Assembly (NCBI GenBank): GCA_038380435.1 | Contig: JAWZYU010000034.1 | Span: forward strand, 42,346,901-42,410,900 | Reading direction: 5' to 3' | Source of the DNA: Ryuthela nishihirai | Lineage: Eukaryota > Arthropoda > Arachnida > Araneae > Heptathelidae | Length of the DNA: 64,000 nucleotides | Shown: piece after piece, positions 14,412-63,244 of the stretch | How the letters are laid out: the number at the start of each line of letters is the position of its first letter | Position numbering within the stretch: position 1 is the stretch's first letter | Translations under genes and position numbers: made by a program | Notes under the pieces: model-generated | The model's input: only the letters and a program-made list of their open reading frames with translations | The model's database searches: none | Told to the model about the DNA's origin: nothing

Positions 14412-15120
14412 TGTTACGACAGAAGGAATCTGGCAACCGAAAGCAAAAAGTTTCAGCCAACGAATAAGAACTTTGGGAGAATTTGGAGAAGAAGAGTGGA
14501 GCGTTAACGGTCGTTTTGTATTGTAACGGTTGTTGTGTTGTAACGGTCGGAGAGTTCGAAAATGGACGGTGAGCTGTTCTGAGACAGTGCGCGTAAGTAT
14601 CAAGAAATAACTTGATGTGTTGTGTATACGCGGAAGGATAAAAGTGGGATCTTTTATCGTTAAGTATCAAGAAGTAACTTGATGTGTTGTGTATACGCGG
14701 AAGGATAAAAGTGGGATCTTTTATCGTTAAGTATCAAGAAGTAACTTGATGTGTTGTGTATACGCGGAAGTATAAAAGTGGGAACTTTTATGGCTAACTT
14801 CGAATGTCTACACGGACTGTCTTTTTGTTCGGCTAGTGTGTGAAAAGTTATTAGCACAGGACGAGAATTGGTTTACGAGTGAAGATCTTCGGGTGACCTG
14901 GTAAATCAAGTAAAAGGTAGTATTTAGTAAAATACACAGAGCTGATATTGTGTGCTCTACGCAGGAAGATTGATGACTTGTGCATGTTAATAGTTGATTT
15001 GTTAATAAGATACTTCATCCATATTTCCTTTGTAACAATTTACCTTGTATTGAATTTGGTTTTGAAATATAGCTTTTAATACTCACGCTCAGTGGCTATC
15101 CATTTTTGTGATCCGCAACA
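14412..15120 (+). repeat. 5' LTR of element 1
   Basis: Begins TGTTACGACAGAAGG and ends GTGATCCGCAACA. It contains three tandem copies of a 67-bp unit starting at 14594, 14661 and 14728, each with a GATAAAAG or TATAAAAG motif, so the promoter core itself is repeated. Confidence 0.96.
14771..14778 (+). promoter_or_regulatory. candidate TATA box in the 5' LTR
   Basis: TATAAAAG in the third 67-bp unit. The first two units carry GATAAAAG at the same place. The matching site in the 3' LTR is 20415-20422. Position alone supports a promoter role. Confidence 0.5.
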
Positions 15121-15122
15121 TT

Positions 15123-15140
15123 TGGTGTCAGAAGTGGGAT
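15123..15140 (+). other. primer binding site, tRNA-Leu type
   Basis: TGGTGTCAGAAGTGGGAT begins 2 nt after the LTR. It is complementary to a 3' end reading ATCCCACTTCTGACA plus CCA, as found in some animal tRNA-Leu (recalled, not searched). The same 18 bases occur in the second LTR element at 56230-56247. Confidence 0.85.
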
Positions 15141-15150
15141 AATTTATTGA

Positions 15151-16371
15151 ATGCCGTTAACTAGAAGTATGGATGAATTAGTAAAGTTGATGAATGACAT
15201 TAAAAGTCAAAATAATGACTTGAAAGCCGAAATGGCCGCCCAAAGCGATAAAATAGGTGATATGAAAGCCGATATAGCTGCCCAAAGCGATAAAATAGGT
15301 GATTTGAAAGCCGATATGGCCGCACAAAATAATGAGTTGAGGACTGACTTGAAAGCCGAAATAGCCGCACAAAATACTGAGATGAGAGCTGAAGTGGCTT
15401 CTCAAATTGATAAGATTTCTGATAAGTGTAAGGACATTATGACCGAACTAAATAGTGTAAAAGATGATCTTGATAGTGTTAAGTTAGATTATAAACATGA
15501 AATTGAAATTGTAAAAACTGATTGTGAACGCCAGTTTCAGATTTTGAGAAATGAAATGTTACCTTCTGCCTGTGATAATAATAATTCTAGTGGAAATAAT
15601 GTTATTACACATATCGCTAAAAATACAACTAAACCTTCTACATATGATGGTCAATCATCTTGGACAGTATTTAAAACACAATTCGAAGTTATCGCCACAG
15701 CCAATGAGTGGAATGAATTCCAAAAGGCCAGTTTTCTTGCAGCTTCCTTAAGGAATTCTGCTGCGGAAGTTTTGCAGTCTGTTCCAGAAGAAAAACGACT
15801 TGATTATCAAAGTCTAGTTTCTGCATTAGAACTAAGGTTTGGTGATAGTTATTTAAAACAATATTACGTGACTCAATTTAAACATCGCATGCAGAAAAAT
15901 GGTGAAACTTTGCAAGAGCTTGCTAGTGATATTGAGCGTCTAGCTAGATTGGCTTATAGTAACTGTCCACCAGAAATTCAAGATAATTTAGCTCAATTAC
16001 AATTTATTGATGCTATTGCTGACCCTGACACTCAGCAATCTCTGAGGATGTTGGAAGGTGAATCCTTAAAGTTAGCTGTGGTACATGCTATGAAATACGA
16101 GTGCTCTAGGCTTTCCTCCCGAGCGAACAAACGTACAGTGAGATTTGTAAGTGCAGAAGAAACTGTAGAAAAGGATAATGAAATGAAAGAACTAACTAAA
16201 GCGATGCTATCCGTTTTGAAAGACATAAGAGGTTCTTCTTCAAAAACTACAACAGACCTTCAGTGTTGGAATTGTGGCAAGACCGGACACATTCGTACCA
16301 ATTGTAATAGGAAACGAATGAGGAGTCCAAGTCCATCAACTAGACAACAGGATCAGGGAAACAGAAATTAG
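15151..16371 (+). CDS. gag: gag polyprotein, element 1
   Basis: 406 codons from the ATG that lies 11 nt after the PBS. Residues 1-135 are a repetitive coiled-coil-like region with several 'AAQ(S/N)(D/N)KIG/ELR' units, likely for particle assembly. Residues ~155-330 look like a Ty3-type capsid domain (YDGQSSWTVFKTQFE start). A single zinc knuckle, C372-x2-C375-x4-H380-x4-C385, should bind genomic RNA. The stop TAG is at 16369-16371, and the pol frame is already open 28 nt upstream in the -1 frame. A host gene is excluded by the LTR context. The frame is intact. Confidence 0.93.
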   Translation: MPLTRSMDELVKLMNDIKSQNNDLKAEMAAQSDKIGDMKADIAAQSDKIGDLKADMAAQNNELRTDLKAEIAAQNTEMRAEVASQIDKISDKCKDIMTELNSVKDDLDSVKLDYKHEIEIVKTDCERQFQILRNEMLPSACDNNNSSGNNVITHIAKNTTKPSTYDGQSSWTVFKTQFEVIATANEWNEFQKASFLAASLRNSAAEVLQSVPEEKRLDYQSLVSALELRFGDSYLKQYYVTQFKHRMQKNGETLQELASDIERLARLAYSNCPPEIQDNLAQLQFIDAIADPDTQQSLRMLEGESLKLAVVHAMKYECSRLSSRANKRTVRFVSAEETVEKDNEMKELTKAMLSVLKDIRGSSSKTTTDLQCWNCGKTGHIRTNCNRKRMRSPSPSTRQQDQGNRN

Positions 16372-17327
16372 TCAGTCTTGCGGGGCAAAGGCTGGCTGTT
16401 GATTGGTTGGCCCCAGGGGAAGTCGCCCACGTTTCAACACTACATGGTGATAATAATGGATTAGTAGCTGATGGAGCCATAAATGGAATACCTTGCCGTA
16501 TGATAGTCGACACTGGTGCAAATGTAACTTTACTCAGAACGGATATAATAAAGAAAATAATACCTCACCCAAACTTGAATACTACACAGTCTAGAATAAG
16601 CCTACAAACGGCCACTGGAGATCGTGCAAAAGTTCATGGAAAAATAGAACTTAATATTCGAGTTGGTAGCTGTCTGGTTCGCCATCCTGTTTACATCGCT
16701 GACATCTACGACGAATGCATATTAGGCCTTGATTTTCTTAAGAAACATGGATTCAACATTAGACCCAGTGATAACCTACTCATCTATGAGACAGAAGAGA
16801 TTCCTCTGCTTAGCCGGACGTCTGATTCTTTATCAAGCGTAACTCCAATATTAGTGACGGAAGACACAGAGATCCCAGCACAAAGTGAAGTTATAGTCCG
16901 TGGACATCGGGCGGAGACTTCTGGGGCCTTCCGATTGGCAGTTACTGATGCCTCTGGTAAAGGAGCTTTGGCTCATAACATCCTGGTTGCAAGGACTTTA
17001 GTCAGAATAGATAAAGAACAGATCCCTATCAGAGTGATGAACTGTAACAAATCCAATAGAATGTTAAAAAAAGGTGAGGAATTAGCAATATGTGAAGCTG
17101 TTACCTGTGTAACAAGTATAAATAAAATAGAAGTTACCGATTCATATCAAAACCATACCGACATCCCGTCTCATCTTACTGAATTATGGAGAGAAACAAG
17201 ACAAATATTAACTGAAAACCAAGCTGTTAAGGCCGAGAACCTATTAAAAGAATTTTCTGACATTTTTTCTGCCACATCAAATGATTATGGCCGTACTAAC
17301 CTGACAGAACATAAAATCAACACGTGA
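16344..17327 (+). pseudogene. pol: pol N-terminal part with aspartic protease, element 1
   Basis: Frame open from 16344, -1 relative to gag. Numbered from 16407, the retropepsin active site DTGA is at residues 35-38 (context MIVDTGANVTLL) and the matching ILGLDF at 105-110, as in Ty3 proteases. The frame ends at TGA 17325-17327, while homologous sequence continues without a gap in the next frame. So a small length change near 17324 splits what should be one pol reading frame. A programmed shift here is unlikely because no slippery motif is present and Ty3 elements do not normally separate protease from RT this way. Confidence 0.88.
16356..16362 (+). promoter_or_regulatory. candidate -1 ribosomal frameshift site (G GGA AAC)
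   Basis: GGGAAAC lies in the gag frame exactly as X XXY YYZ (codons GGA 16357-16359 and AAC 16360-16362), two codons before the gag stop. Slipping back one base leads without a stop into the protease frame, which is open from 16344. The same heptamer is used by several lentiviruses (established). A GGGGC (16383-16387) / GCCCC (16412-16416) stem could form downstream, though its spacing is longer than usual. Confidence 0.75.
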
Positions 17328-20151
17328 TTCTCCTCCAGTCCATCTGCCGGCAAGAAGGCTTCCATTGGCAAAAAGAGAGGAGACGGAACAACTCATAAAG
17401 GACATGGAAGCTCAGGGCATTATAGAACCATCACAGAGTCCCTGGACATCACCAGTAGTTCTTGTCAAGAAAAAGGATGGATCTACACGATTTTGTGTAG
17501 ATTATCGCAGATTAAATGACGTAACAAAGAAAGATTCCTTTCCTTTACCCAGGATTGACGATACACTAGACACTTTATCTGGGTCAGAATGGTTCTCAAC
17601 ATTAGATTTAAAGAGCGGCTATTGGCAAGTTGGTATACGTCCTGAAGACCGTGAGAAAACAGCTTTCAGTACAGGGAATGGACTTTGGCAGTTTAAGGTG
17701 ATGCCATTTGGACTTTGTAATGCACCTGCCACATTTGAGCGACTAATGGAGTCAGTGCTCAAAGGTTTGTCTTTGGAGGTCTGCCTGGTTTACTTGGACG
17801 ACATCATAGTTCTTGGAAGAACTTTTGAAGAACATTTGAGAAATCTTCGTCAAGTATTTGAAAAACTTAAGGCAGCCAAGTTAAAATTGGGACCGACAAA
17901 GTGTAAACTGTTCCAGCAAGAAGTTCATTACCTTGGTCATGTGATCACTACAGCAGGGATTAAGACTGATCCTAGTAAGATAGAAGCTGTAAGAGACTGG
18001 CCTCCACCACAAGATGTTCATCAACTTCGTAGTTTTATTGGACTTTGCACCTACTATAGAAGATTTGTCAAAGGTTTCTCCAACATCGCAAGGCCATTAC
18101 ATCGTCTGACAGAAGAGGGCCAGCGGTTTATGTGGACCACCGAATGCGATATAGCCTTTCAACAGCTAAAGAAAACTCTTTCCACAGCACCAGTGCTAGC
18201 GTACCCACAAACTGGAAAACAATTCGTAATAGATACTGACGCAAGTAACACAGGAGTTGGTGCTGTGCTTTCACAGGAACAAGACGGACAAGAGAGAGTT
18301 ATTGCATACTTTAGTAAAACTTTATCCAAACCAGAGCGGAATTACTGTGTAACACGCAAAGAACTGTTAGCAATAGTAAAAGCAATAGAACATTTTCATC
18401 ATTATCTCTATGGCCAGAAATTCCTTATACGTACTGATCATGCTGCACTTAGATGGTTATTAAACTTCAAAAACCCTGAAGGACAAATCGCTAGGTGGAT
18501 ACAACGGTTACAAGAATACGATTTCTCCATCGAACATCGAAGTGGTAAAATGCATAAGAATGCAGATGCTCTTTCCAGGCGCCCATGTATTGACAATTGT
18601 AAACATTGCTATAATGCAGAACTGAAATTTGGAACTAAAGAGATAATGCCCATAAGACAAATAGTATCGACACAAACAAACAGTGACACCCCTAACATCT
18701 GGAATCCAATTGAAATCAGGAAGGCTCAACTAGATGATGAAGACATAAAACCAATATTAGAATTGATTGAAAAATCTGATGTAAGACCTAATTGGGAGCA
18801 AATCTCGAGGTATAGTCCAACTACTAAAAGTTACTGGGCACAGTGGGACTCCTTAAAAATGGAAGACGGAGTATTATACAGAAGATGGGAGAATCCCACT
18901 GGACGGCTGATCCGTTGGCAGATAATCCTTCCTCGATCCCGAGTGGAACTTGTGATGAAAGATGTACATGATAGTGCCACTGGAGGACACTTCGGTGTTA
19001 ATAAGACATTAGCCAAAGCCAGGGAACGATTTCATTGGTTGAAAAGTAGGGCAGACGTTGAGAGATGGTGTAGGCAATGTAAAGCCTGTGCAGCAAAGAA
19101 AGGCCCTAAGACTAGGAGTCGGGGTAAGCTGCAGACGTATAACGTTGGTGCCCCTTTTGAAAGAATAGCCATTGATGTAATGGGTCCGTTTCCTAGAACT
19201 GATGATGGAAATCGATATTTATTAGTGGTAATGGATTATTTCACAAAGTGGCCTGAGGTATATCCCATCCAAGACCAGGAAGCAACAACAGTGGCTGAGA
19301 TGATAGTTAATAACTTCATTAGTAGGTACGGAGTACCTTTACAACTCCACTCTGATCAAGGACGGAATTTTGAATCCAATGTGTTTAAAGGCATCTGTCA
19401 ACTATTAGGCATTCAGAAAACCAGAACAACTCCCTTACACCCTCAGTCGGATGGTATGGTTGAAAGGTTCAATAGAACAATTGCTCAGCATTTAGCATTA
19501 TTTGTGAACGACCACCAACGTGACTGGGATCGCCATGTACCACTCCTTTTGCTGGCATATAGAACGGCAGTGCATGAGACAACTGGACAGATACCTTCCA
19601 TGATGATTTTTGGAAGAGAGTTACGTCTTCCCTGTGACCTTTTATATGGTCGACCCGAAGCAATGCCTGTGTCCACTCCACAATACGTACAAGAATTGCA
19701 ACAACGACTAGAAGAAATCCATCACTCCGTTAGACATAACATCGACATAACAAGTGACAGAACCAAAACAAGATATGACAGTAAAATAAATGGAACTATT
19801 TTCAATCAAGGAGATCTTGTCTGGCTATACAGTCCACATAGAAAGAAAGGACTATCTCCAAAACTTCAGAAACCTTGGGAAGGTCCATATACAATAGTTA
19901 ACAGGATTAATGACGTGGTATATCGCATTCGTCGACGTCCAGCTACAAAGTGCAAGGTGGTTCACGAGGATCGTTTGGCCCCGTTTCATCGAAGAACTGA
20001 AGAAACTTTGGAATCCAGAATTGTTCGGGACGAACAAGACCTAGGAAGGGGGCAGTGTTACGACAGAAGGAATCTGGCAACCGAAAGCAAAAAGTTTCAG
20101 CCAACGAATAAGAACTTTGGGAGAATTTGGAGAAGAAGAGTGGAGCGTTAA
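17326..20151 (+). pseudogene. pol: pol RT-RNase H-integrase part, element 1
   Basis: Open from the frame break to 20151; the first ATG is at 17365. Numbered from that ATG: RT with D81 and YLDD 143-146; RNase H with D290 region, E333, D358 and D401; integrase zinc region H535/H542 with C569/C572/C575; catalytic triad D604, D664 and E700 (35 residues between the last two); and a GPY motif at 840-842. All key residues are present, so only the frame break upstream looks disabling. The frame crosses the PPT and reads ~32 codons into the 3' LTR before stopping at 20149-20151. The second LTR element shares its last ~60 residues. Confidence 0.93.
20043..20055 (+). other. polypurine tract of element 1
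   Basis: AGGAAGGGGGCAG directly before the 3' LTR, the expected plus-strand primer position. The same sequence occurs inverted at 53298-53310. Confidence 0.85.
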
Positions 20152-20764
20152 CGGTCGTTTTGTATTGTAACGGTTGTTGTGTTGTAACGGTCGGAGAGTT
20201 CGAAAATGGACGGTGAGCTGTTCTGAGACAGTGCGCGTAAGTATCAAGAAATAACTTGATGTGTTGTGTATACGCGGAAGGATAAAAGTGGGATCTTTTA
20301 TCGTTAAGTATCAAGAAGTAACTTGATGTGTTGTGTATACGCGGAAGGATAAAAGTGGGATCTTTTATCGTTAAGTATCAAGAAGTAACTTGATGTGTTG
20401 TGTATACGCGGAAGTATAAAAGTGGGAACTTTTATGGCTAACTTCGAATGTCTACACGGACTGTCTTTTTGTTCGACTAGTGTGTGAAAAGTTATTAGCA
20501 CAGGACGAGAATTGGTTTACGAGTGAAGATCTTCGGGTGACCTGGTAAATCAAGTAAAAGGTAGTATTTAGTAAAATACACAGAGCTGATATTGTGTGCT
20601 CTACGCAGGAAGATTGATGACTTGTGCATGTTAATAGTTGATTTGTTAATAAGATACTTCATCCATATTTCCTTTGTAACAATTTACCTTGTATTGAATT
20701 TGGTTTTGAAATATAGCTTTTAATACTCACGCTCAGTGGCTATCCATTTTTGTGATCCGCAACA
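20056..20764 (+). repeat. 3' LTR of element 1
   Basis: 709 bp, essentially identical to 14412-15120, including the three 67-bp units. Confidence 0.96.
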
Positions 20765-28596: not shown

Positions 28597-28604
28597 CCAT
28601 ATAG

Positions 28605-36000: not shown

Positions 36001-36034
36001 CTATAGCAGCGATCCTTAGATTAATTTCTCTTAT
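30056..36034. repeat. 34-bp satellite array, ~175 copies
   Basis: Unit CTTATCTATAGCAGTGGTCC followed by TTAGATTAATTTCA, with 36-bp variants containing CTCTTTATC. Main variants are TCGTTAG, TCCTTAG and TTGTTAG. From ~32600 they cycle in threes, giving a ~102-bp higher-order repeat. CAGTGGTYCTTAG resembles a hAT terminus, suggesting but not proving a transposon origin. Confidence 0.96.
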
Positions 36035-42627: not shown

Positions 42628-42940
42628 AAGACTTACGTGGTGATTTTATAGTGAACGTTATATTTACCCATTGATAGGGATTTCTCAGAGGTAACCTAAA
42701 GAATGGGAAAGGCATTAGATTGTGAGACTTGTGAGATCCTGAAGCTTGAAGTGTTTTGTTGATAGGAGGTAAGCCCTGAGGGAAAAAGGAGGATTAGGAA
42801 GGAGTCTTTGTCTTATGCCTGAGACAGTAAAATAGTTCTCTTTTGCCACTGTCAGCTGGCCAATGCGCTCGAGCTTAATTGACTATCTCTCGAGTGGAAA
42901 GCACTCTTCTTACACTGCAGCAACACTTTAGAAGGTTTGA
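42628..42940. other. unassigned spacer
   Basis: Single-copy sequence between two SINE-1 arrays that converge on it; no gene seen. Confidence 0.4.
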
Positions 42941-44170
42941 GTTGGGTTGTTTTACCTCTGAGCGGAACTTTTTTGCACACCATGGGCTAAATGGCCAGGT
43001 TACATGGACCCCGAAGGCTCAGAGAAGATTGGGGGAGGGGACCCACTGGAACAGGTGTTGGGAAACAGATGGTAGCCTCCCGTCAAGGCCATCCAGCGTA
43101 TTTTTTAACGTTGGGTTGTTTTACCTCTGAGCGGCACTTTTTTGCACACCATGGGCTAAATGGCCAGGTCAGAAGGACCCCGAAGACTCAGAGAAGGTTG
43201 GGGGAGGGGACCCACTGGAACAGCTGTTGGGAGACGGATGGTAGCCTCCCATCAAGGCCATCCAGCGTGTTCTTTAACGTTGGGTTGTTTTACCTCTGAG
43301 CGGCACTTTTTTGCACACCATGGGCTATATGGCCAGGTCACAAGGACCCCGAAGACTCAGAGAAGGTTGGGGGAGGGGACCCACTGGAACAGCTGTTGGG
43401 AGACGGATGGTAGCCTCCCATCAAGGCCATCCAGCGTGTTCTTTAACGTTGGGTTGTTTTTACCTCTGAGCGGCACTTTTTTTGCACACCATGGTCTAAA
43501 TGACCAGGTCGCAAGGACACCGAAGGCTCAGAGATGGTTGAGGGAGGGGACCCACTGGAACAGCTGTTAGGAGACGGATGGTAGCCTCCCATCAAGGCCA
43601 TCCAGCGTGTTCTTTAACGTTGGGTTGTTTTACCTCTGAGCGGCACTTTTTTTGCACACCATGGGCTAAATGACCAGGTCGCAAGGACACCGAAGGCTCA
43701 GAGATGGTTGAGGGAGGGGACCCACTGGAACAGCTGTTGGGAGACGGATTGTAGCCTTCCATCAAGGCCATCCATGGTGTTCTTTAACGTTGGGTTGTTT
43801 CACCTCTGAGCGGCACTTTTTTGCACACCATGGGCCAAATGGCCAGGTCACAAGGACCCCGAAGACTCAGAGAAGGTTGGGGGAGGGGACCCACTGGAAC
43901 AGCTGTTGGGAGACGGATGGTAGCCTCCCGTCAAGGCCATCCAGCGTGTTCTTTAACCTGCACAGGGTATGTCTCTCCCGCACACGGGGCAACGGCTTAA
44001 TGTCCCATCCGACGGACGGCGGTCTTTCCAAGTCCATCGGTGTTCCCTACTGACCGTGGGCAGGGCGGGGAATTTTGCGGAGATAAATCTCAACGTTGGC
44101 CCAGCAGGGACTCGAACCTAGAACTGCAGATTAAAAGTCTGGCACGCTACCGACTGAGCTCCCTCCCCGA
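42941..44170 (-). mobile_element. SINE-1 copy with a ~6-unit tail array
   Basis: Minus-strand copy with six tandem 169-bp units, middle and a decayed head (CTGGCACGCTACCGACTGAG, complement side). Units share private changes (GACGGATGG, CCATCAAGG), showing local amplification. Confidence 0.9.
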
Positions 44171-48591: not shown

Positions 48592-51125
48592 TACAGTCGA
48601 TCAAAAAAAGTATCCGAACGTTATGGTTGATTACAGGTTGATTACAGCAACTGTACACACTCCAGTTACCATTCACAGCAAACTGGAGCGTGTGCAGTTA
48701 CTGCACACGCTCCAGTTTGCTGTGAACGGTAACTGCACACGCTCAATATTTCCGTGAGTGAGCCCACACGATCCAGGTCTTTGTGAGCTCACACGATCCA
48801 ATGTGCTGTGAACATTAACCGCAACCGCTCCAGATTGCTGTGAACGGTAACTGCACACGCTCAATATTTCCGTGAGTGAGCCCACACGATCCAGGTCTTT
48901 GTGAGCTCACACGATCCAATGTGCTGTGAACATTAACCGCAACCGCTCCAGTTTGCTGTGAACGGTAACTGCACACGCTCAATATTTCCGTGAGTGAGCC
49001 CACACGATCCAGGTCTTTGTGAGCTCACACGATCCAATGTGCTGTGAACATTAACCGCAACCGCTCCAGATTGCTGTGAACGGTAACTGCACACGCTCAA
49101 TATTTCCGTGAGTGAGCCCACACGATCCAGGTCTTTGTGAGCTCACACGATCCAATGTGCTGTGAACATTAACCGCAACCGCTCCAGTTTGCTGTGAACG
49201 GTAACTGCACACGCTCAATATTTCCGTGAGTGAGCCCACACGATCCAGGTCTTTGTGAGCTCACACGATCCAATGTGCTGTGAACATTAACCGCAACCGC
49301 TCCAGATTGCTGTGAACGGTAACTGCACACGCTCAATATTTCCGTCAGTGAGCCCACACGATCCAGGTCTTTGTGAGCTCACACGATCCAATGTGCTGTG
49401 AACATTAACCGCAACCGCTCCAGTTTGCTGTGAACGGTAACTGCACACGCTCAATATTTCCGTGAGTGAGCCCACACGATCCAGGTCTTTGTGAGCTCAC
49501 ACGATCCAATGTGCTGTGAACATTAACCGCAACCGCTCCAGTTTTCTGTGAACGGTAACTGCACACGCTCAATATTTCCGTGAGTGAGCCCACACGATCC
49601 AGGTCTTTGTGAGCTCACACGATCCAATGTCCTGTGAACATTAACCGCAACCGCTCCAGTTTGCTGTGAACGGTAACTGCACACGCTCAATATTTCCGTG
49701 AGTGAGCCCACACGATCCAGGTCTTTGTGAGCTCACACGATCCAATGTGCTGTGAACATTAACCGCAACCGCTCCAGTTTGCTGTGAACGGTAACTGCAC
49801 ACGCTCAATATTTCCGTGAGTGAGCCCACACGATCCAGGTCTTTGTGAGCTCACACGATCCAATGTGCTGTGAACATTAACCGCAACCGCTGCAGTTTGC
49901 TGTGAACGATAACTGCACACGCTCAATATTTCCGTGAGTGAGCCCACACGATCCAGGTCTTTTTGCGCTCACACGATCCAATGTCCTGTGAACATTAACC
50001 GCAACCGCTCCAGTTTGCTGTGAACGATAACTGCACACGCTCAATATTTCCGTGAGTGAGCCCACACGATCCAGGTCTTTGTGAGCTCACACGATCCAAT
50101 GTGCTGTGAACATTAACCGCAACCGCTCCAGTTTGCTGTGAACGGTAACTGCACACGCTCAATATTTCCGTGAGTGAGCCCACACGATCCAGGTCTCTGT
50201 GAGCTCACACGATCCAATGTGCTGTGAACATTAACCGCAACCGCTCCAGTTTGCTGTGAACGGTAACTGCACACGCTCAATATTTCCGTGAGTGAGCCCA
50301 CACGATCCAGGTCTTTGTGAGCTCACACGATCCAATGTGCTGAGAACATTAACCGCAACCGCTCCAGTTTGCTGTGAACGGTAACTGCACACGCTCAATT
50401 TTTCCGTCAGTGAGCCCACACGATCCAGGTCTTTGTGAGCTCACACGATCCAATGTGCTGTGAACATTAACCGCAACCGCTCCAGTTTGCTGTGAACGGT
50501 AACTGCACACGCTCAATATTTCCGTGAGTGAGCCCATACGATCCAGGTCTTTGTGAGCTCACACGATCCAATGTGCTGTGAACATTAACCGCAACCGCTC
50601 CAGTTTGCTGTGAACGGTAACTGCACACGCTCAATATTTCCGTGAGTGAGCCCATACGATCCAGGTCTTTGTGAGCTCACACGATCCAATGTGCTGTGAA
50701 CATTAACCGCAACCGCTCCAGTTTGCTGTGAACGGTAACTGCACACGCTCAATATTTCCGTGAGTGAGCCCACACGATCCAGGTCTTTGTGAGCTCACAC
50801 GATCCAATGTGCTGTGAACATTAACCGCAACCGCTCCAGTTTGCTGTGAACGGTAACTGCACACGCTCCATATTAATTGCATTGTATATTCATACGCATT
50901 ATATATATTAAAAAATATCCGAACACTATGGTTGATTAGAGAATTCAGAAAAAAAAATCTAGCAACGATTTTTTTCAGAAATTAAGTTTTCATGAGTTAA
51001 TTTTTTTCAGAAGTTAACAACCTTCGTGTCACGTGACACGAAGGTTGCCACGTACCTTTACGGATACTTTTTTGGTCCGTAAAGGTACTTTTTTGAAAAT
51101 ACGGATACTTTTTTGAGCGACTGTA
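48592..51125. mobile_element. palindromic MITE with an expanded 118-bp array
   Basis: TA-CAGTCGATCAAAAAAAGTAT at 48592 and GAGCGACTG-TA at 51125. It has the same layout as 20804-21417: left half, 118-bp repeats, an AT-rich CATTATATATATTAAAAAAT link and a right MITE half. The right end carries extra duplications of GGATACTTTTTTG around 51060-51115. Confidence 0.88.
48700..50870. repeat. 118-bp satellite array, ~18 copies
   Basis: Unit AACTGCACACGCTCAATATT - TCCGTGAGTGAGCCCACACG - ATCCAGGTCTTTGTGAGCTC - ... - GCTCCAGTTTGCTGTGAACG. Near-identical copies at 118-bp spacing. Early units alternate AGATTGC and AGTTTGC, a dimeric pattern to ~49430. The first half unit is a hairpin (48661-48740). Confidence 0.96.
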
Positions 51126-51838
51126 TTAGGTAGCCGACAACAGTTCAGTCGTAAAATTCCAGTAAAGAATATTTCAAAGATCATTTTGAGACAACAGTAG
51201 AGGGAAAGTGGGGGTTCTAACTCAGTGGCGGATCAATGTTAATCCTATGGAATCCGCCACCCATATGTTTCAAGGTGGCGGATCAATGTTAATCCTATGG
51301 GATCCGCCACCCATGTGTTTCAAGCTGGTGGCGGAGCACATTGGTCAGAATTCTCATTGTTTTTAAGACTGAAGTCAGACAGTAGTGAATAAAATACCTT
51401 TCTCCAGTAATGTATTAATCTGAAATTATTCAGTTGCGGATAATCCACTCGTAATTTCCACCGACATCCATCTTGCTTTCCACAAATCCCGAAATTTTTT
51501 CGAGTCCACCATTTAGAAACCTGACGTCACCACAAACTCCCGTGATTTTGCAGGTCGTCCACCATCTTGGTTTCTACCCTCATCCGAAATTTCCAAGTCC
51601 AGACTCCACCATCTTGGTTCCTGACGACACCTATTTAAGTTCTACTTTTTAAAATATTTTTACCCAATAGTATTTTTTTTTCTTTTCCTGCAGGACAATC
51701 TTTTAAATCAGTTTCTGCGGGATAGTATATTATTCAGTTAAATTGGAGGTAATAATATATAACAGATGGTATTGGATAACAACTCGATCATAATTTCCAG
51801 AGAAAACTATCTTGGTTTCTACCCTCATCCGAATTTTT

Positions 51839-52670: not shown

Positions 52671-52674
52671 ATAT

Positions 52675-53297
52675 TGTTGCGGATTTCAAAAATTGATAGC
52701 CACTGAGCGTGAGTATTAAAAGCTATATTTCAAAACCAAATTCAATACAAGGTAAATTGTTACAAAGGAAATATGGATGAAGTATCTTATTAACAAATCA
52801 ACTATTAACATGCACAAGTCATCAATCTTCCTGCATGAGCACACATCAGCTCTGTGTATTTTACTAAATACTACCTTTTACTTGATTTACCAGGTCACCC
52901 GAAGATCTTCACTCGTAAACCAATTCTCGTCCTGTGCTAATAACTTTTCACACACTAGCCGAACAAAAAGACAGTCCGTGTAGACATTCGAAGTTAGCCA
53001 TAAAAGTTCCCACTTTTATACTTCCGCGTATACACAACACATCAAGTTACTTCTTGATACTTAACGATAAAAGATCCCACTTTTATCCTTCCGCGTATAC
53101 ACAACACATCAAGTTACTTCTTGATACTTAACGCGCACTGTCTCAGAACAGCTCACCGTCCATTTTCTCGAACTCTCCCACCGTTACAATACACAATGAC
53201 CGTTAACGCTCCACTCTTCTTCTCCAAATTCTCCCAAAGTTCAATTCGTTGGCTGAAACTTTTTGCTTTCGGTTGCCAGATTCCTTCTGTCGTAACA
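52675..53297 (-). repeat. 3' LTR of element 2
   Basis: 623 bp with no difference from the 5' LTR found by eye. The candidate TATA motif is at 53013-53020 (minus). Confidence 0.95.
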
Positions 53298-56213
53298 CTG
53301 CCCCCTTCCTAGGTCTTGTTCGTCCCGAACAATTCTGGATTCCAAAGTTTCTTCAGTTCTTTGATGAAACGGGGTCAAACGATCCACGTGAACCACCTTG
53401 CTCTTTGTAGCTGGACGTCGACGAATGCGAAATTCCACGTCTGTGTCAAAATGAAAGCGAATCTCATTATGACTTAGATTTCTTTTCTGACTGAAGCCTC
53501 GTCCACAAATATAATACGTGTAAGGCCTATAGCCCTTGTGAACACGCTTATGTCTCCGCAGGGAGAAGAATCGACAAAGAGTTTTCGTGCAAAACCTGTA
53601 AAAAGTTTTCTTCTTTGTCGAAAGTTTTCTTCTTTGGATTTTTACTTCTATCAACAGTAACAAGGAATGAAAGTCATTAGTGACATAAAATCTAGGGAGG
53701 AGTTTCATCCTCCAGTCTGACCCTTTTGTCAGTTGACTTTCACTTAATTCAGAACTGTCGTGATGAACCTTCAGCCATACTTCACCTGAATCAATTTGAT
53801 CCCCAAGGTGCTTCACAAATATAATATCAGCTCCATAATTCTTTTTAGCGCCTCGGTCCATCTCCTCCTTCCATAATCTTGTTAGAACTGCAGCTTCTAA
53901 TCCGACAACCTTACCTGTTTCTCCTGTATAAGTGAAATCAGTGATGTGTCGGGCTGCTAGCAATATTTTTTCTGTTTTTCCTTCACATAGCCAGCTTGCA
54001 ACATCTTCAGATACTCCTTGTTCTATTAACATGTTACGAAACTTGTTCAAAGCATTGCCGTTATGCAGAACCTTGCAGACACGTGATGCTTCATCTACCC
54101 TATTATCCACAATGTTCACCAAACGCAGAAGTTCTCCTCCTAACTCTTCGACGAGCTCTTGCTGTTCCAAGGATCCGTTACCAAGGAAACACTGAACAGC
54201 TTCCATCACTTCCAGAGAGTTGTCAACAGAGTTTTCAAGAGGTGAATCCATGTTGCTGATAACAGCTGAACTCTTCATTCCACGAGTTTGTGATGCTGCA
54301 ACCATTTTCTTAACTAAATCAACAGCAACATCTTCTGTACTGATGAGATCAATAGCTCCTTTTCCGAATTCATCATCATAAACCAAAGCGCACACTCCTT
54401 CAGCCAGCTTTTTGGACACAATTGAGCATCTCCTTAGAGGAACGCTATCTACGGTAGCCGTCAGATCCTTGCAGCGGTAAATCTCCTTATCTGTTGGCAC
54501 CAGCTCCTCTGTCTGTCCTACGATGCAGCATCCGACGTCTTCCATCATCTGCTCGATTTTATCTTTAGTGCAGTCAACTGTGAAGCTAGGGATGGATTCC
54601 AATTTGTCCAGAGTATCTCCCGTCAATTGGAGAGCACGACCGGAGATCATAGGGACCTTGAGACCTAAAGCAGCAAGTGCAGGAGCCAAGACAAGACTCA
54701 CTTTGTTGCCGACACCTCCTGTGCTGTTTTTATCTACCATCCGATGGCGCCACTCGGGTCTCCAGCAAAACACATGACCCGAGGAGGTCATATTTGCTGT
54801 TTCTTCCGAATTCACTTTCTTGGAGCTCTCATTGTAATTAGCCAGGGAAATATCAGTCATGATTGCCAAATTGTTCATTCTGGAGATCAGCGACGAGTTC
54901 TGTAACATGATATTGTCCACTTTAGAGCTCTTGTAGTCGTGATAAAACTTTTCTATATCCTTATAATCTAAATGGTTATAATGTCCAAATCTGCACATTG
55001 ACTGTTCAGAAAAGAAATTCAGCATGGTTTCGTTGAGATTGTCTGAGGGCTTTACTTCTCTCTGATCGTAACTCTGAGGCTTAGTTTCATCCAGAAAGTT
55101 AGTCTTTGAAGTACTGTCTCTGCCTGAAGCTCTTTTACTAGCATCACCTGTTATGCTTCTAAGCCATCCTTCGGAATTCCTCTTCCTTAAATCCCCACTT
55201 TCTATAAACGATTCGAGTGTGGCTATATGCTTCGGAAAAATCTCTCCGACTTCCGCGGTAAAGTCGAATGGCACTTTGTATCTATGATGAATGGACGCCT
55301 CTTCTTTACTCGGACCACTCTGCGAAACGTAAACTCTGTTTCGTTCCCCTTCATTACCACTCGTTACTCTGCCTTTGCGATAATTGTCCATGACGCATTT
55401 TGCTGAGAGCAAGGAATAGAATACCTTTCGTGTGGATCTCTCTTCAGATCGTGCCAGACTTGTATACCTAGGTATTTTGAAGTGCAAAGCGTACTGTATA
55501 GTCTCGCAGCTCTCTGATCTGTGTGATTGTTCTTCACAGTTCCTAGACATGTCACCAGCGACATAGACACTCTGCCATGCATCACCAGTAGTTGCGTGGT
55601 CAAAGGCATTATCTGCACTATCTCTACGATTCTTGATTTCCAGTAGCAGATCCACATTTTTATATGCGTTGCCTTTCTCTTTTTCTTTTCCATGTTTACA
55701 ATCTAACTTAACACTATCAAGATCATCTTTTTCACTGACAAATTCAACATTTAAACTATTGCATTGTCTATTGAGTTCGGTTTTATGATCCTTGAAGTGA
55801 TCAATAAACTTACCAACTTGAGAAGCCACTTCAGCTCTCATCTCAGTATTTTGTGCGGCCAGGTCACCTATTTTATTTCTCAACTCATTATTTTGTGCGG
55901 CCATTTCGGCTTTCAAATCATCTTTTTGAGAAACTATCTCAGTTCTTAACTCATTATTTTGTGCGGCCATTTCGGCTTTCAAATCATCTTTTTGAGAAAC
56001 TATCTCAGTTCTCAACTCATTATTTTGTGCGGCCATTTCGCTATTTTGACTTTTAATGTCATTCATCTGTGTAGCCATATCAGTCATCTGCGTAGCCATA
56101 TCGGCTTTCAAGTCACCTATTTTATCGCTTTGGGCGGCCAGATCACCTTTAATATCGGCTTTCAAGTCATTTATCAACTTTACTAATTCATCCATACTTC
56201 TAGTTAACGGCAT
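53241..56213 (-). CDS. gag-host-pol fusion ORF with thymidine phosphorylase domain
   Basis: 990 codons from the ATG just after the PBS, at the gag position. Residues 1-174 match the gag coiled coil of element 1 (start MPLTRSMDELVKL; 22-residue repeats at 59, 81 and 103; end SVKLDCKH). Residues 175-466 are not recognised. Residues ~467-836 are a thymidine phosphorylase: STGGVGNKVSLVLAPAL at 496, TGDTLDKLESIPSF at 531, TATVDS at 585, SIVSKKLAEG at 597, HLGDQIDSGEVWLKVH at 802. Residues ~871-922 are degenerate C2H2 fingers. Residues ~928-990 match the C-terminus of element 1 pol and run through the PPT into the LTR. Likely catalytic residues are changed (DKNSTGG where the family has DKHSTGG; CKDLTATVDS where it has an Arg). 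An enzyme role is doubtful; a fusion RNA or protein carried by the element is certain in layout. Confidence 0.85.
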   Translation of the reverse strand: MPLTRSMDELVKLINDLKADIKGDLAAQSDKIGDLKADMATQMTDMATQMNDIKSQNSEMAAQNNELRTEIVSQKDDLKAEMAAQNNELRTEIVSQKDDLKAEMAAQNNELRNKIGDLAAQNTEMRAEVASQVGKFIDHFKDHKTELNRQCNSLNVEFVSEKDDLDSVKLDCKHGKEKEKGNAYKNVDLLLEIKNRRDSADNAFDHATTGDAWQSVYVAGDMSRNCEEQSHRSESCETIQYALHFKIPRYTSLARSEERSTRKVFYSLLSAKCVMDNYRKGRVTSGNEGERNRVYVSQSGPSKEEASIHHRYKVPFDFTAEVGEIFPKHIATLESFIESGDLRKRNSEGWLRSITGDASKRASGRDSTSKTNFLDETKPQSYDQREVKPSDNLNETMLNFFSEQSMCRFGHYNHLDYKDIEKFYHDYKSSKVDNIMLQNSSLISRMNNLAIMTDISLANYNESSKKVNSEETANMTSSGHVFCWRPEWRHRMVDKNSTGGVGNKVSLVLAPALAALGLKVPMISGRALQLTGDTLDKLESIPSFTVDCTKDKIEQMMEDVGCCIVGQTEELVPTDKEIYRCKDLTATVDSVPLRRCSIVSKKLAEGVCALVYDDEFGKGAIDLISTEDVAVDLVKKMVAASQTRGMKSSAVISNMDSPLENSVDNSLEVMEAVQCFLGNGSLEQQELVEELGGELLRLVNIVDNRVDEASRVCKVLHNGNALNKFRNMLIEQGVSEDVASWLCEGKTEKILLAARHITDFTYTGETGKVVGLEAAVLTRLWKEEMDRGAKKNYGADIIFVKHLGDQIDSGEVWLKVHHDSSELSESQLTKGSDWRMKLLPRFYVTNDFHSLLLLIEVKIQRRKLSTKKKTFYRFCTKTLCRFFSLRRHKRVHKGYRPYTYYICGRGFSQKRNLSHNEIRFHFDTDVEFRIRRRPATKSKVVHVDRLTPFHQRTEETLESRIVRDEQDLGRGQCYDRRNLATESKKFQPTN
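53298..53310 (-). other. polypurine tract of element 2
   Basis: Minus-strand AGGAAGGGGGCAG directly before the 3' LTR, identical to element 1. Confidence 0.85.
53448..53603 (-). other. captured C2H2 zinc-finger fragment
   Basis: Residues 871-922 of the fusion: LRRHKRVHKGYRPY resembles the H-x3-H plus TGEKPY linker, and ICGRGFSQKRNL resembles the next finger. The first Cys of each finger is missing or misplaced, so zinc binding is doubtful. It is likely a separate captured host transcript. Confidence 0.7.
53706..54813 (-). other. TYMP-like: captured thymidine phosphorylase (TYMP) domain
   Basis: About 370 residues covering the end of the N-terminal helical domain, the glycine-rich phosphate-binding region, the pyrimidine-binding region and the C-terminal domain of metazoan TYMP (phosphorolysis of thymidine). 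The open frame runs on without interruption, which points to a spliced mRNA source. The N-terminal ~80-100 residues of the enzyme are absent. Identification rests on motif order recalled from the human and bacterial enzymes. Confidence 0.85.
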
Positions 56214-56229
56214 TCAATAAATTATCATA

Positions 56230-56247
56230 ATCCCACTTCTGACACCA
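56230..56247 (-). other. primer binding site of element 2
   Basis: The same 18-base tRNA-Leu-type site as element 1, separated from the LTR by 2 nt. Confidence 0.85.
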
Positions 56248-56249
56248 AA

Positions 56250-56872
56250 TGTTGCGGATTTCAAAAATTGATAGCCACTGAGCGTGAGTATTAAAAGCTA
56301 TATTTCAAAACCAAATTCAATACAAGGTAAATTGTTACAAAGGAAATATGGATGAAGTATCTTATTAACAAATCAACTATTAACATGCACAAGTCATCAA
56401 TCTTCCTGCATGAGCACACATCAGCTCTGTGTATTTTACTAAATACTACCTTTTACTTGATTTACCAGGTCACCCGAAGATCTTCACTCGTAAACCAATT
56501 CTCGTCCTGTGCTAATAACTTTTCACACACTAGCCGAACAAAAAGACAGTCCGTGTAGACATTCGAAGTTAGCCATAAAAGTTCCCACTTTTATACTTCC
56601 GCGTATACACAACACATCAAGTTACTTCTTGATACTTAACGATAAAAGATCCCACTTTTATCCTTCCGCGTATACACAACACATCAAGTTACTTCTTGAT
56701 ACTTAACGCGCACTGTCTCAGAACAGCTCACCGTCCATTTTCTCGAACTCTCCCACCGTTACAATACACAATGACCGTTAACGCTCCACTCTTCTTCTCC
56801 AAATTCTCCCAAAGTTCAATTCGTTGGCTGAAACTTTTTGCTTTCGGTTGCCAGATTCCTTCTGTCGTAACA
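56250..56872 (-). repeat. 5' LTR of element 2
   Basis: On the minus strand begins TGTTACGACAGAAGGAATCT and ends CCGCAACA. The candidate TATAAAAG is at 56588-56595 (minus). Confidence 0.95.
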
Positions 56873-56876
56873 ATAT

Positions 56877-58971: not shown

Positions 58972-59619
58972 AAAAAATTCGGATGAGGGTAGAAACCAAG
59001 ATAGTTTTCTCTGGAAATTATGATCGAGTTGTTATTCATACCATCTGTTATATATTATTACCTCCAATTTAACTGAATAATATACTATCCCGCAGAAACT
59101 GATTTAAAAGATTGTCCTGCAGAAAAAGAAAAAAAATACTATTGGGTAAAAATATTTTAAAAAGTAGAACTTCTAATAGGTGTCGTCAGGAACCAAGATG
59201 GTGGAGTCTGGACTTGGAAATTTCGGATGAGGGTAGAAACCAAGATGGTGGACGACCGGCAAAATCACGGGAGTTTGTGGTGACGTCAGGTTTCTAAATG
59301 GTGGACTCGAAAAAATTTCGGGATTTGTGGAAAGCAAGATGGATGTCGGTGGAAATTACGAGTGGATTATCCGCAACTGAATAATTTCAGATTAATACAT
59401 TACTGGAGAAAGGTATTTTATTCACTACTGTCTGACTTCAGTCTTAAAAACAATGAGAATTCTGACCAATGTGCTCCGCCACCAGCTTGAAACACATGGG
59501 TGGCGGATCCCATAGGATTAACATTGATCCGCCACCTTGAAACACATGGGTGGCGGATCCCATAGGATTAACATTGATCCGCCACTGAGTTAGAACCCCC
59601 ACTTTCCCTCTACTGACAA

Positions 59620-60053: not shown

Positions 60054-61451
60054 GTTGGGTTGGGTTGTTTTACCTCTGAGCGGCACTTTTTTGCACACCA
60101 TGGGCTAAATGGCCAGGTCACATGGACCCCGAAGACTCGGAGAAGGTTGGGGGAGGGGACCTACTGGAACAGCTGTTGGGAGACAGATGGTAGCCTCCCG
60201 TCAAGGCCATGCAGCATGTTCTTTAACGTTGGGTTGTTTTACCTCTGAGCGGCACTTTTTTGCACACCATGGGCTAAATGGCCAGGTCACATGGACCCCG
60301 AAGACTCGGAGAAGGTTGGGGGAGGGGACCTACTGGAACAGCTGTTGGGAGACAGATGGTAGCCTCCCGTCAAGGCCATGCAGCATGTTCTTTAACGTTG
60401 GGTTGTTTTACCTCTGAGCGGCACTTTTTTGCACACCATGGGCTAAATGGCCAGGTCACATGGACCCCGAAGGCTCGGAAATGGTTGGGGGAGGGGACCT
60501 ACTGGAACAGCTGTTGGGAGACAGATGGTAGCCTCCCGTCAAGGCCATGCAGTATGTTCTTTAACGCTGGGTTGTTTTACCTCTGAGCGGCACTTTTTTG
60601 CACACCATGGGCTAAATGGCCAGGTCACATGGACCCCGATGGCTCGGAGATGGTTGGGGGAGGGGACCTACTGGAACAGCTGTTGGGAGACAGATGGTAG
60701 CCTCCCGTCAATGCCATCCAGTATGTTCTTTAACGTTGGGTTGTTTTACCTCTGAGCGGCACTTTTTTGCACACCATGGTCTAAATAGCCAGGTCACATG
60801 GACCCCGAAGGCTCAGTGAAGGTTGCGGGAGGGGACCCACTGGAACAGTTGTTGGGAGACAGATGGTAGCCTCCCGTCAAGGCCATCCAGCGTGTTCTTT
60901 AACGTTGGGTTGTTTTACCTCTGAGCGGCACTTTTTTTTGCACACCATGGGCTAAATGTCCAGGTCACAAGGACCCTGAAGGCTCAGAGAAGGTTGGGGG
61001 AGGGGACCCACTGGAACAGCTGTGGGAGACACATGGTAGCCTCCCGTCAAGGCCATCCAGCGTGTTCTTTAAAGTTGGGTTGTTTTACCTCTGAGCGGCA
61101 CTTTTTTGCACACCATGGTCTACATGGCCAGGTCATATGGACCCCGAAAGCTCAGAGAAAGTTGGGGACCCACTGGAACAGCTGTTGGGAGACAGATGGT
61201 AGTCTGCCGTCAAGGCCATCCAGCGTGTTCTTTAACGTGCACAGGGTATGTCTCTCCCGCACACGGGGCCACGGATTAACGTCCCATCCGACGGACGGCG
61301 TCCTTTCCAAGTCCATCGGTGTCCCCTACTGACCGTGGGCAGGGCGGGGAATTTTGCGGAGATAAATCTCAACGCTGACCCAGCTGGGACTCGAACCTGG
61401 GAACTACAGATTACGAGCCTGGCGCGCTACCTACTGAGCCACCCCCGCCCC
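60054..61451 (-). mobile_element. SINE-1 copy with a ~7-unit tail array
   Basis: Minus-strand copy. The first four units (60054-60735) share private changes (GACCTACTGG, CCATGCAGCA) and are nearly identical, indicating recent local amplification. The middle and a full head follow at 61230-61451. Confidence 0.92.
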
Positions 61452-61960
61452 ATATGGGTGTAAATATGTTGGACGCCTAAATCCCCATGTATTTGTCTGT
61501 TTGTCACAAACCATGGGGCATTTACGGCCTGTCTCAAGATTTTATTTTGAAAGATCTGGAGTTTCTCAATATTTGCCTTTGTCGTGTTAGCCCATATGGG
61601 GGATGCATGTGTTATAACGGGTCTAAGAACTGTAGGGTAATAAAGTAGTAACTTATGATCAATGGAGAGGATAGAATTCCTTCCCATCAAAGGGCCAAGT
61701 TGGCATCGAATCATGTTTGCTTTTTGCAGAACATTTTCAATGTGCTTGTCCCACCTGAGCTTGCTATGCAAGGTAACGCCCAGATACAGTTTTCCAGATA
61801 CAGTTTTCTGCCAGTTAAGTGTTGTATCGAAAAAGTTGAGAGTCTGGGGGTTAGTGACTCTTTTGGTGGTAAATAAAACTAAAGCACTTTTCTCAACGTG
61901 GATTGCAATGTTCCATTTACTATACCATTGCTCTATCTTATCCAAGCCTTCCTGTAATCT
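61452..61960 (-). pseudogene. Jockey-like LINE reverse-transcriptase fragment
   Basis: A minus-strand frame with LQEGLDKIEQWYSKWNI, LYLGVTLHSKLRWDKHIE, LRPVITHASPIWANTTK and LQIFQNKILRQAVNAPWFV, the C-terminal thumb region of Jockey-type RT. It is truncated on both sides and joined to SINE-1 sequence. At the right junction GTAATCTGCAG resembles GTAATCTGTAG of the SINE head, suggesting a microhomology join. Confidence 0.8.
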
Positions 61961-63244
61961 GCAGTAGGGGACACCGATGGGCTTGAAAAGGCCGCCGTCC
62001 GTCGGATAGGACGTTAAGCCGTGGCCCCGTGTGCGAGAGAGCCATACCCTGTACACGTTAAAGAACACGCTGGATGGTCTTGACGGGAGGCTACCATCTG
62101 TCCCCCAACAGCTGTTCCAGTGGGTCCCCTCCTCCAACCTTCTCTGAGCCTTAGGGGTCCATGTGACCTGGCCATTTAGCCCATGGTGTGCAAAAAAGTG
62201 CCGCTCAGAGGTGAAACAACCCAACGTTAAAGAACACTCTGGATGGCCTTGACGGGAGGCTACCATCTGTCCCCCAACAGCTGTTCCAGTGGGTCCCCTC
62301 CTCCAACCTTCTCTGAGCCTTCGGAGTCCATGTGACCTGGCCATTTAGCCCATGGTGTGCAAAAAAGTGCCGCTCAGAGGTAAAACAACCCAACGTTAAA
62401 GAACACTCTGAATGGCCTTGATGGGATGCTACCATCTTTCTCCCAACAGCTGTTCCAGTGGGTCCCTTCCTCCAACCTTCTCTGAGCCTTCGGGGTCCAT
62501 GTGACCTGGCCATTTAGCCCATGGTGTGCAAAAAAGTGCCGCTCAGGGGTAAAACAACCCAACGTTAAAGAACACGCTGGTTGGCCTTGACGGGAGGGCT
62601 ACCATCTGTCTCCCAACAACTGTTCCAGTGGGTCCCCTCCCCCAACCTTCTCTGAGCCTTCGGGGTCCATGTGACCTGGCCATTTAGCCCATGGTGTGCA
62701 AAAAAGTGCCGCTCAGAGGTAAAACAACCCAACGTTAAAGAACACTCTGGATGGCCTTGACGGGAGGCTACCATCTGTCTCCCAACAGCTGTTCCAGTGG
62801 GTCCCCTCCTCCAACCTTCTCTGAGATTTCGGGGTCCATGTGACCTGGCCATTTAGCCCATGGTGTGCAAAAAAGTGCCGCTCAGAGGTAAAACAACCCA
62901 ACGTTAAAGAACACTCTGGATGGCCTTGACGGGAGGCTACCATCTGTCTCCCAACAGCTGTTCCAGTGGGTCCCCTCCCCCAACCTTCTCTGAGCCTTCG
63001 AGGTCCATGTGACCTGGGTATTTAGCCCATGGTGTGCAAAAAAAGTGCCGCTCAGAGGTAAAACAACCCAACGTTAAAGAACACTCTGGATGGCCTTGAC
63101 GGGAGGCTACCATCTGTCTCCCAACAGCTGTTCCAGTGGGTCCCCTCCTCCAACCTTCTCTGAGCCTTCGGGGTCCATGTGACCTGGCCATTTAGCCCAT
63201 GGTGTGCAATAAAGTGCCGCTCAGATGTAAAACAACCCAACCCA
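61961..63244 (+). mobile_element. SINE-1 array, ~7 units, head missing
   Basis: Plus-strand copy starting within the middle region (TAGGGGACACCGATGGGC) and running through about seven 169-bp units to AACAACCCAACCC. Units share the private change AACACTCTGGATGG. Confidence 0.9.

What the first reader, a model, noticed from the sequence alone, without database searches (positions are those of the whole stretch)
53241..56213. LTR retrotransposon that captured a host thymidine phosphorylase as a gag-host-pol fusion
Between matching LTRs, PBS and PPT lies one 990-codon frame. Its first 174 residues are gag and its last ~60 are pol of the family represented by element 1. The middle ~750 residues are foreign and include an intronless TYMP domain in the motif order of the metazoan enzyme. 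This is the architecture of retroviral gene transduction, seldom reported for Ty3-type elements. The frame is open throughout and the LTRs look identical, so insertion is recent.
Basis: partly seen in the sequence, partly recalled or inferred. Interest (0 to 1): 0.93.

Follow-up and report, generated by a model that had tools for sequence, protein, structure and literature searches.

The report
Jumping element carrying captured host genes
A recently active genomic parasite carries, fused into its own protein, pieces of animal genes including a crippled copy of the enzyme thymidine phosphorylase, and it has spread to hundreds of places in this genome.

Summary
Window 52675-56872 (minus strand) is an LTR element: two identical 623-bp LTRs, ATAT target-site duplication, PBS and PPT as in the autonomous-looking element at 14412-20764, and one 990-codon frame. 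The frame is gag N-terminus, an unidentified stretch X (175-469), thymidine phosphorylase (TYMP, about 470-830), two degenerate C2H2 fingers, and a pol tail. The TYMP part groups with chelicerate enzymes and is modelled in the TYMP fold.

It is not a single transduced copy: the genome holds at least 298 loci of this family. In the 40 copies read for ages, 23 LTR pairs have no mismatch and 38 have 4-bp TSDs. Six of seven longer or older-looking relatives keep the catalytic histidine that the window copy has lost. So the capture predates this insertion, and the enzyme decayed inside a replicating element. TYMP evolves near-neutrally, X is more constrained.

Best reading: a non-autonomous Ty3-type family, like maize Bs1, moved by autonomous relatives; the fused protein is probably not an enzyme. 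The host donor genes were not found. An open frame is not strictly required: copies with stops also multiplied.

The parts
56250..56872 (-). 5' LTR, 623 bp, TGTT...AACA
   Evidence: 100% identical to 52675-53297
56230..56247 (-). primer binding site TGGTGTCAGAAGTGGGAT
   Evidence: directly after the 5' LTR; all 18 bases equal those of element 1; complementarity to tRNA-Leu is recalled, not tested
55692..56213 (-). gag N-terminus (residues 1-174), repetitive, coiled-coil-like (inferred); no zinc-knuckle match
   Evidence: 43% to element 1 gag over residues 1-190; DNA homology fades about residue 175
54807..55691 (-). X (residues 175-469): open, no detected homologue, mostly low-confidence in the model
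   Evidence: 0 of 273 candidates at E<=1 for residues 175-466; Pfam none; pLDDT mostly <50 up to about residue 414 and 52-72 for 415-464; omega 0.56 among copies
53724..54806 (-). captured thymidine phosphorylase domain (residues 470-830)
53448..53630 (-). two degenerate C2H2 zinc fingers (residues about 862-922)
   Evidence: PRDM9 zinc fingers E=3e-11, best stretch 885-915; first Cys position of both fingers is Tyr in the 39 copies shown, read by eye
53298..53441 (-). pol (integrase C-terminus) remnant, residues 925-972
   Evidence: Integrase_p58_C residues 925-948 (below its curated cut-off); 91% to element 1 pol end over 925-990
53298..53310 (-). polypurine tract AGGAAGGGGGCAG
   Evidence: identical in element 1
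52675..53297 (-). 3' LTR, 623 bp
52671..52674 (.). target-site duplication ATAT, 3' side
56873..56876 (.). target-site duplication ATAT, 5' side
14412..20764 (+). element 1: autonomous-looking relative (LTRs 709 bp, 99.86% identical; gag, protease, RT-RNaseH-integrase frames), candidate helper type

Best explanation
This is one young insertion of a non-autonomous Ty3-type LTR retrotransposon family. An ancestor related to element 1 lost most of gag and pol and gained, between them, pieces of at least two cellular genes (TYMP and a C2H2 zinc-finger gene) and a further stretch X, all in one frame. Inferred steps: cellular mRNAs were packaged with element RNA, and template switching during reverse transcription joined them; the resulting RNA keeps LTR, PBS, 5' leader and PPT, and is copied in trans by Gag, RT and integrase of autonomous relatives such as element 1. 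Shown: the parts, the amplification (at least 298 loci), the recency of many insertions, and the loss of catalytic residues, part of it within the family. The captured TYMP is most likely a passenger without enzyme activity. What selection remains acts on X and perhaps on keeping a long frame, for example for RNA stability or for a Gag-like role of the N-terminus; this last step is speculative.
For: Parts and LTR/TSD/PBS/PPT. Copies: 46 near-full-length copies scored, 45 without a stop; union = 298 loci when places within 2.6 kb are merged. Recency: in the 40 copies L001-L040, 23 LTR pairs have 0 mismatches, 30 mismatches in all 40 together; 38 of 40 have matching 4-bp TSDs, by eye. Origin of TYMP: the 11 best hits are Limulus, Tachypleus, four spiders and five unnamed, 44-49%; element rows fall on the chelicerate side of the tree (fork 100/98, midpoint root), next to the spider-containing clade (90/85). 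Decay: residue 582 is K in 39 of 39 and in 8 of 8 further copies; residue 496 is N in 32, Y in 6, H in 1 of 39, but H in 6 and N in 2 of the 8 further copies. Codon model: TYMP omega 0.79 (lnL -3138.8 against -3140.0 at omega 1), X 0.56 (-2843.6 against -2852.0).
Against: The donor genes were not found in the genome, so intron loss and template switching are inferred. Microhomology at the junctions could not be tested. Trans-mobilisation by element 1 is inferred from shared ends only. The copies read were picked by similarity to the window copy, so counts of open frames, ages and omega values are biased to some unknown degree.
Confidence: 0.75

Rival explanations
1. The fused frame encodes a protein that the element needs in cis: the gag coiled coil plus X forms a Gag-like or RNA-binding protein, and TYMP is a tolerated spacer.
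For: X is more constrained than TYMP (omega 0.56, lnL gain 8.4 over omega 1). Nine pairs of longer against young copies give X ratios 0.45-0.70 and TYMP 0.57-1.71. About 534 substitutions on the tree of 39 copies would give about 20 stops if the frame were free, and these 39 have none. The shorter X of the window copy differs in frame from longer open frames of 1161 and 1144 aa in L045 and L046.
Against: The 39 were chosen for frames over 900 aa, and L045 and L046 were picked for long frames. In one search more than 50 of the matches listed have a TGA in the queried stretch, many with recurring frame lengths (423-425, 717-720), so interrupted forms multiplied as well. In less selected samples only 92 of 150 and 77 of 150 lie in frames of 900 aa or more.
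Confidence: 0.3
2. The long frame is kept only because RNAs with early stops are degraded (nonsense-mediated decay or loss of ribosome protection). The protein itself does nothing.
For: Near-neutral amino-acid change in TYMP with few stops: 2 of 150 matches carry one within 131 codons and 2 of 150 within 117 codons (38 loci are in both lists, and one stop is the same). Catalytic and zinc-binding positions are lost, yet frames are open.
Against: X shows constraint beyond frame keeping. The TGA-bearing copies.
Confidence: 0.3
3. One host fusion gene (X-TYMP-zinc finger), or a degenerate TYMP paralogue, was captured in a single event; decay of Arg202 and the zinc fingers preceded capture.
For: K582, E615, E660 and D664 are shared by all 47 copies checked, and Tyr at both first-Cys positions by the 39 copies, so these changes predate the radiation of those copies.
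Against: None of the 17 hits of the whole-frame search carries a C2H2 finger beside the TYMP domain (the TYMP search could only see proteins up to about 648 aa). The state of residue 496 varies within the family, so His was lost there.
Confidence: 0.25
4. Assembly artefact or chance frame.
For: None found.
Against: TSDs, identical LTRs and at least 298 loci on many contigs.
Confidence: 0.01

Closest known systems
Maize Bs1 retroelement
   Same: LTR element with segments of three host genes that gave a chimeric gene (passages of PMC13317346 and PMC5408686; 'hybrid open reading frame' is from the title of Elrouby and Bureau 2001 in a reference list; its gag part is recalled)
   Different: Plant, other host genes. 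Here the TYMP is chelicerate-like, the family has hundreds of loci with many identical LTR pairs, and active-site loss can be followed among copies.
LTR-mediated retroposition in metazoans (Tan et al. 2016, not held; known here through passages of PMC5408686 and PMC8232201)
   Same: Intronless animal gene copies between LTRs, explained by template switching with packaged mRNA
   Different: Those are described as retrocopies made by LTR elements; here a multi-gene fusion became the body of an amplified element family.
Crocodilian endogenous retroviruses with KIT-ligand or nectin3 (passages of PMC4299795)
   Same: Captured host mRNA carried by lineages of LTR elements with several copies
   Different: Vertebrate retroviruses; their captured ORFs were reported under purifying selection, while TYMP here is near neutral and its active site is lost.
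Oncogene-transducing retroviruses with Gag-host fusions (recalled)
   Same: Gag N-terminus fused to a host protein, replication-defective, helper-dependent
   Different: Ty3-type family with hundreds of insertions in a genome assembly; no sign of an active enzyme.

Membership tests
LTR retrotransposon, Ty3 type (Metaviridae-like) | paired LTRs with TG..CA ends and short TSD | tested here: met
   for the window copy; 4-bp TSD in 38 of 40 copies
LTR retrotransposon, Ty3 type (Metaviridae-like) | PBS after the 5' LTR and PPT before the 3' LTR | tested here: met
   shared with element 1
LTR retrotransposon, Ty3 type (Metaviridae-like) | RT-RNaseH-integrase order in pol | tested here: not met
   absent from this element (only a pol tail remains); present in relative element 1. 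Hence a non-autonomous derivative, not an autonomous member
thymidine phosphorylase (TYMP) | Glycos_transf_3 domain and fold | tested here: met
   (human TYMP 2wk5, E=1e-38, TM 0.85 by target length; the model was built with 44 TYMP relatives)
thymidine phosphorylase (TYMP) | active-site His116 and Arg202 (human numbering, PMC2719695 passages) | tested here: not met
   ORF 496 = N and 582 = K in the window copy; 582 is K in 47 of 47 copies checked; 496 is H in 7 of those 47
thymidine phosphorylase (TYMP) | N-terminal alpha-domain | tested here: inconclusive
   not detected by profile against shuffles; weak extension of genome matches and helices at moderate confidence in a model whose alignment already paired them
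LTR-mediated retrocopy (Bs1-like capture) | captured sequence lacks the donor's introns | not testable with these tools
   the match is colinear over about 360 residues, but no donor gene was found
LTR-mediated retrocopy (Bs1-like capture) | microhomology at junctions | tested here: inconclusive
   element side aligned only; donor side unknown
functional C2H2 zinc finger | two Cys and two His per finger | tested here: not met
   first Cys position is Tyr in both fingers in the 39 copies shown (read by eye)

The most novel reading that the evidence does not exclude
The fusion gave the element a new selfish function. A chimeric Gag-X protein, built partly from cellular genes, acts in cis (RNA packaging, protection from decay, or escape from host control), while the enzyme it came with was taken apart by drift inside an expanding family.
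Probability: 0.25. Interest if true: 0.82.

Novelty: new variant of a known kind. Interest (0 to 1): 0.62.

Why it matters
In the papers I saw, gene capture by LTR elements appears as retrocopies, captured fragments or a few retroviral lineages. Here an animal element family with hundreds of loci, many with identical LTR pairs, carries a multi-gene fusion, and its copies record differences in the loss of active-site residues. That makes it possible to ask whether a captured gene is ever useful to the element, or whether only an open frame matters.

Tried and rejected
Rejected or left open: (1) X contains the TYMP N-terminus. The N-terminal profile scored 3.3 bits on residues 380-480, while at least 12 of 1000 shuffles scored 8.7 to 15.1 (shuffles kept the last 14 residues). 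Later hints leave it open, not shown. (2) X is element 1 gag or pol: no such match in the window by tblastn at E<=0.1. (3) X is a known domain: Pfam none, PDB only E 0.34-1.1. The longer X of L042 gives SWIRM at E=0.013, a lead below its cut-off, and nothing in the PDB. (4) Assembly join: refuted by the copies. (5) The host TYMP gene: a 94-residue query returned 150 matches, all ending at residue 93-94 and weak (E 3e-7 to 6e-5), which I take for element copies; an Araneus N-terminal query returned nothing, from 1 candidate; a Stegodyphus piece returned 150 matches at 51-54%, which I take for element copies. I did not read them one by one, and only 150 are scored per search, so an exon of the host gene could be hidden. 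(6) Viral contigs: 5 stretches matched a pattern, none confirmed. (7) A G-to-A bias among changed conserved sites (7 of 13 one-step changes, binomial tail 0.0002 at kappa 1, 0.003 at kappa 2, 0.019 at kappa 4) is only a lead, because ancestral codons are unknown.
Full report
What is there. The minus strand of window 52675-56872 carries an LTR element. Its LTRs are 623 bp and identical, its flanks repeat ATAT, and its PBS and PPT agree with those of the element at 14412-20764. Between them is a 990-codon frame. Pfam finds Glycos_transf_3 at 490-722 (E=4e-33), and, below their curated cut-offs, zf-H2C2_2 at 884-909 and Integrase_p58_C at 925-948. Human TYMP matches 472-827 at E=2e-76. Residues 1-190 match element 1 gag at 43% and 925-990 match its pol end at 91%. 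X (175-469) matches nothing I could find: for residues 175-466, 0 of 273 candidates at E<=1, no Pfam family, PDB hits only at E 0.34-1.1.

Element 1. The relative at 14412-20764 has 709-bp LTRs with 99.86% identity and frames for gag with a zinc knuckle, protease, and RT-RNaseH-integrase in that order, the order of Ty3-type elements (recalled). It shares LTR ends and the whole PBS with the window copy and is a plausible type of helper. That it moves the TYMP element is inferred.

Source of TYMP. In one search (7992 proteins at E<=0.001, 120 listed) the 11 best are Limulus 48%, Tachypleus 47%, four spiders 44-49% and five unnamed; fishes and others follow. Five element copies form one clade on the chelicerate side of a 34-row tree (fork 100/98; five rows there are unnamed; midpoint root), beside the spider-containing clade (90/85). 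The whole-frame search found 17 proteins, all with the TYMP domain PF00591, none with a C2H2 finger.

Structure. AlphaFold on residues 175-924 with 44 TYMP relatives gives block means of 67-98 for about residues 474-834, 52-72 for 415-464, and mostly below 50 for the rest of X. The best PDB match is human TYMP, E=1e-38, TM 0.85 by target length. The helices just upstream of 474 look like the TYMP N-terminal domain, but the alignment had already paired them, and a profile test failed.

Copies. The window lies in a 3.11-Gb assembly of 1680 contigs. The whole frame finds 46 near-full-length copies, 45 without a stop (46 scored of 10421 first-look candidates). A 131-aa TYMP piece finds 150 (150 scored of 2332): 92 lie in open frames of 900 aa or more, 32 in 700-899, 26 shorter; 2 of 150 have a stop inside the piece. 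A Stegodyphus enzyme piece finds 150 (150 scored of 2340): 77, 36 and 37 in the same bins, 2 with a stop inside. The union is 298 loci. I take all of them for copies of this family and read 48 of the family's loci; the counts are lower bounds.

Ages. For the 40 copies L001-L040, taken from the best matches to the window copy, 23 LTR pairs have no mismatch (some with gap columns) and the other 17 have 30 mismatches together; 38 of 40 have matching 4-bp TSDs, L010 and L038 not. The family has therefore moved very recently.

Decay and selection. Human TP needs His116 and Arg202; H116F, H116K, R202E and R202S gave no activity (passages of PMC2719695; the changes seen here, to N, Y and K, were not assayed there). 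In 39 open copies residue 582 (Arg202) is K in all, and residue 496 (His116) is N in 32, Y in 6, H in 1. In 8 further copies (L041-L048) 582 is K in all and 496 is H in 6, N in 2. So Arg was lost before these copies diverged and His later. At 94 conserved sites the window copy departs at 15; the 44 relatives depart at 0-11. Both zinc fingers have Tyr at the first Cys position in the 39 copies shown. Codon models on 39 copies give omega 0.665 for the captured part (lnL -6933.0 against -6942.0 at omega 1), 0.564 for X (-2843.6 against -2852.0) and 0.791 for TYMP (-3138.8 against -3140.0); omega 1 is not rejected for TYMP. NG86 counts gave 0.56, 0.47 and 0.62, and 0.61 for gag, 0.73 for the zinc-finger region and 1.86 for the 48 pol codons. 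The copies were chosen by protein similarity to the window copy, which may lower omega.

History. Longer copies show more of X. L045 and L046 have open frames of 1161 and 1144 aa and LTR pairs with 1 and 0 mismatches; L048 is also longer in X and keeps the histidine. L042 has a longer X but stops in the aligned parts. L044 carries what looks by eye like a window-type repeat inside X. The window type thus probably arose from a longer form by in-frame loss. Against a strict need for the frame: (267 matches, 150 scored, not all listed) more than 50 of those listed have a TGA in the queried stretch, many with recurring frame lengths. I read only one of these (L047).

Literature. Bs1 of maize carries segments of three host genes that gave a chimeric gene (passages); LTR-mediated retrocopies are known in animals (passages; the primary paper is not held); crocodilian ERVs captured KIT-ligand and nectin3 (passages); 672 and 1,343 captured genes are reported in rice and sorghum (abstract). 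Searches listed no title on a TYMP-carrying or chelicerate gene-capturing LTR element; absence from these lists is weak evidence.

Verdict.

Noticed in passing
window 14412-20764: Element 1: nearly identical 709-bp LTRs and three overlapping frames (15151-16371, 16344-17327, 17305-20151); the protease frame is in another phase than the two around it, so expression probably needs two frameshifts or another device.
   Followed up: partly
window 30070-36034, 21948-28603, 48708-50874: Large tandem arrays: 34-bp unit x 175, 128-bp unit x 52 (97% matches), 118-bp unit x 18 (98% matches).
   Followed up: no
window 2518-3139, 41253-43957, 60059-63241 and elsewhere: A 168-173-bp unit in short tandem arrays in both orientations at many places in the window; similar sequence, by eye, lies inside element copy L044.
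   Followed up: no
window 36844-39063 (-): LINE fragment with endonuclease and reverse transcriptase domains.
   Followed up: no
window 51195-51635 and 59175-59615: Inverted repeat, 441 nt, 99% complementary, on the two sides of the element.
   Followed up: no
TYMP part of the element, 53724-54806: 7 of 13 one-step changes at conserved sites fit G to A on the element's sense strand, which could reflect RT error bias or deamination.
   Followed up: partly
one search places, e.g. G000:C34:32049175 (L047): Copies with a TGA in X have also multiplied; the one read (L047) has LTRs only about 78% like the window copy's over the matched part.
   Followed up: partly
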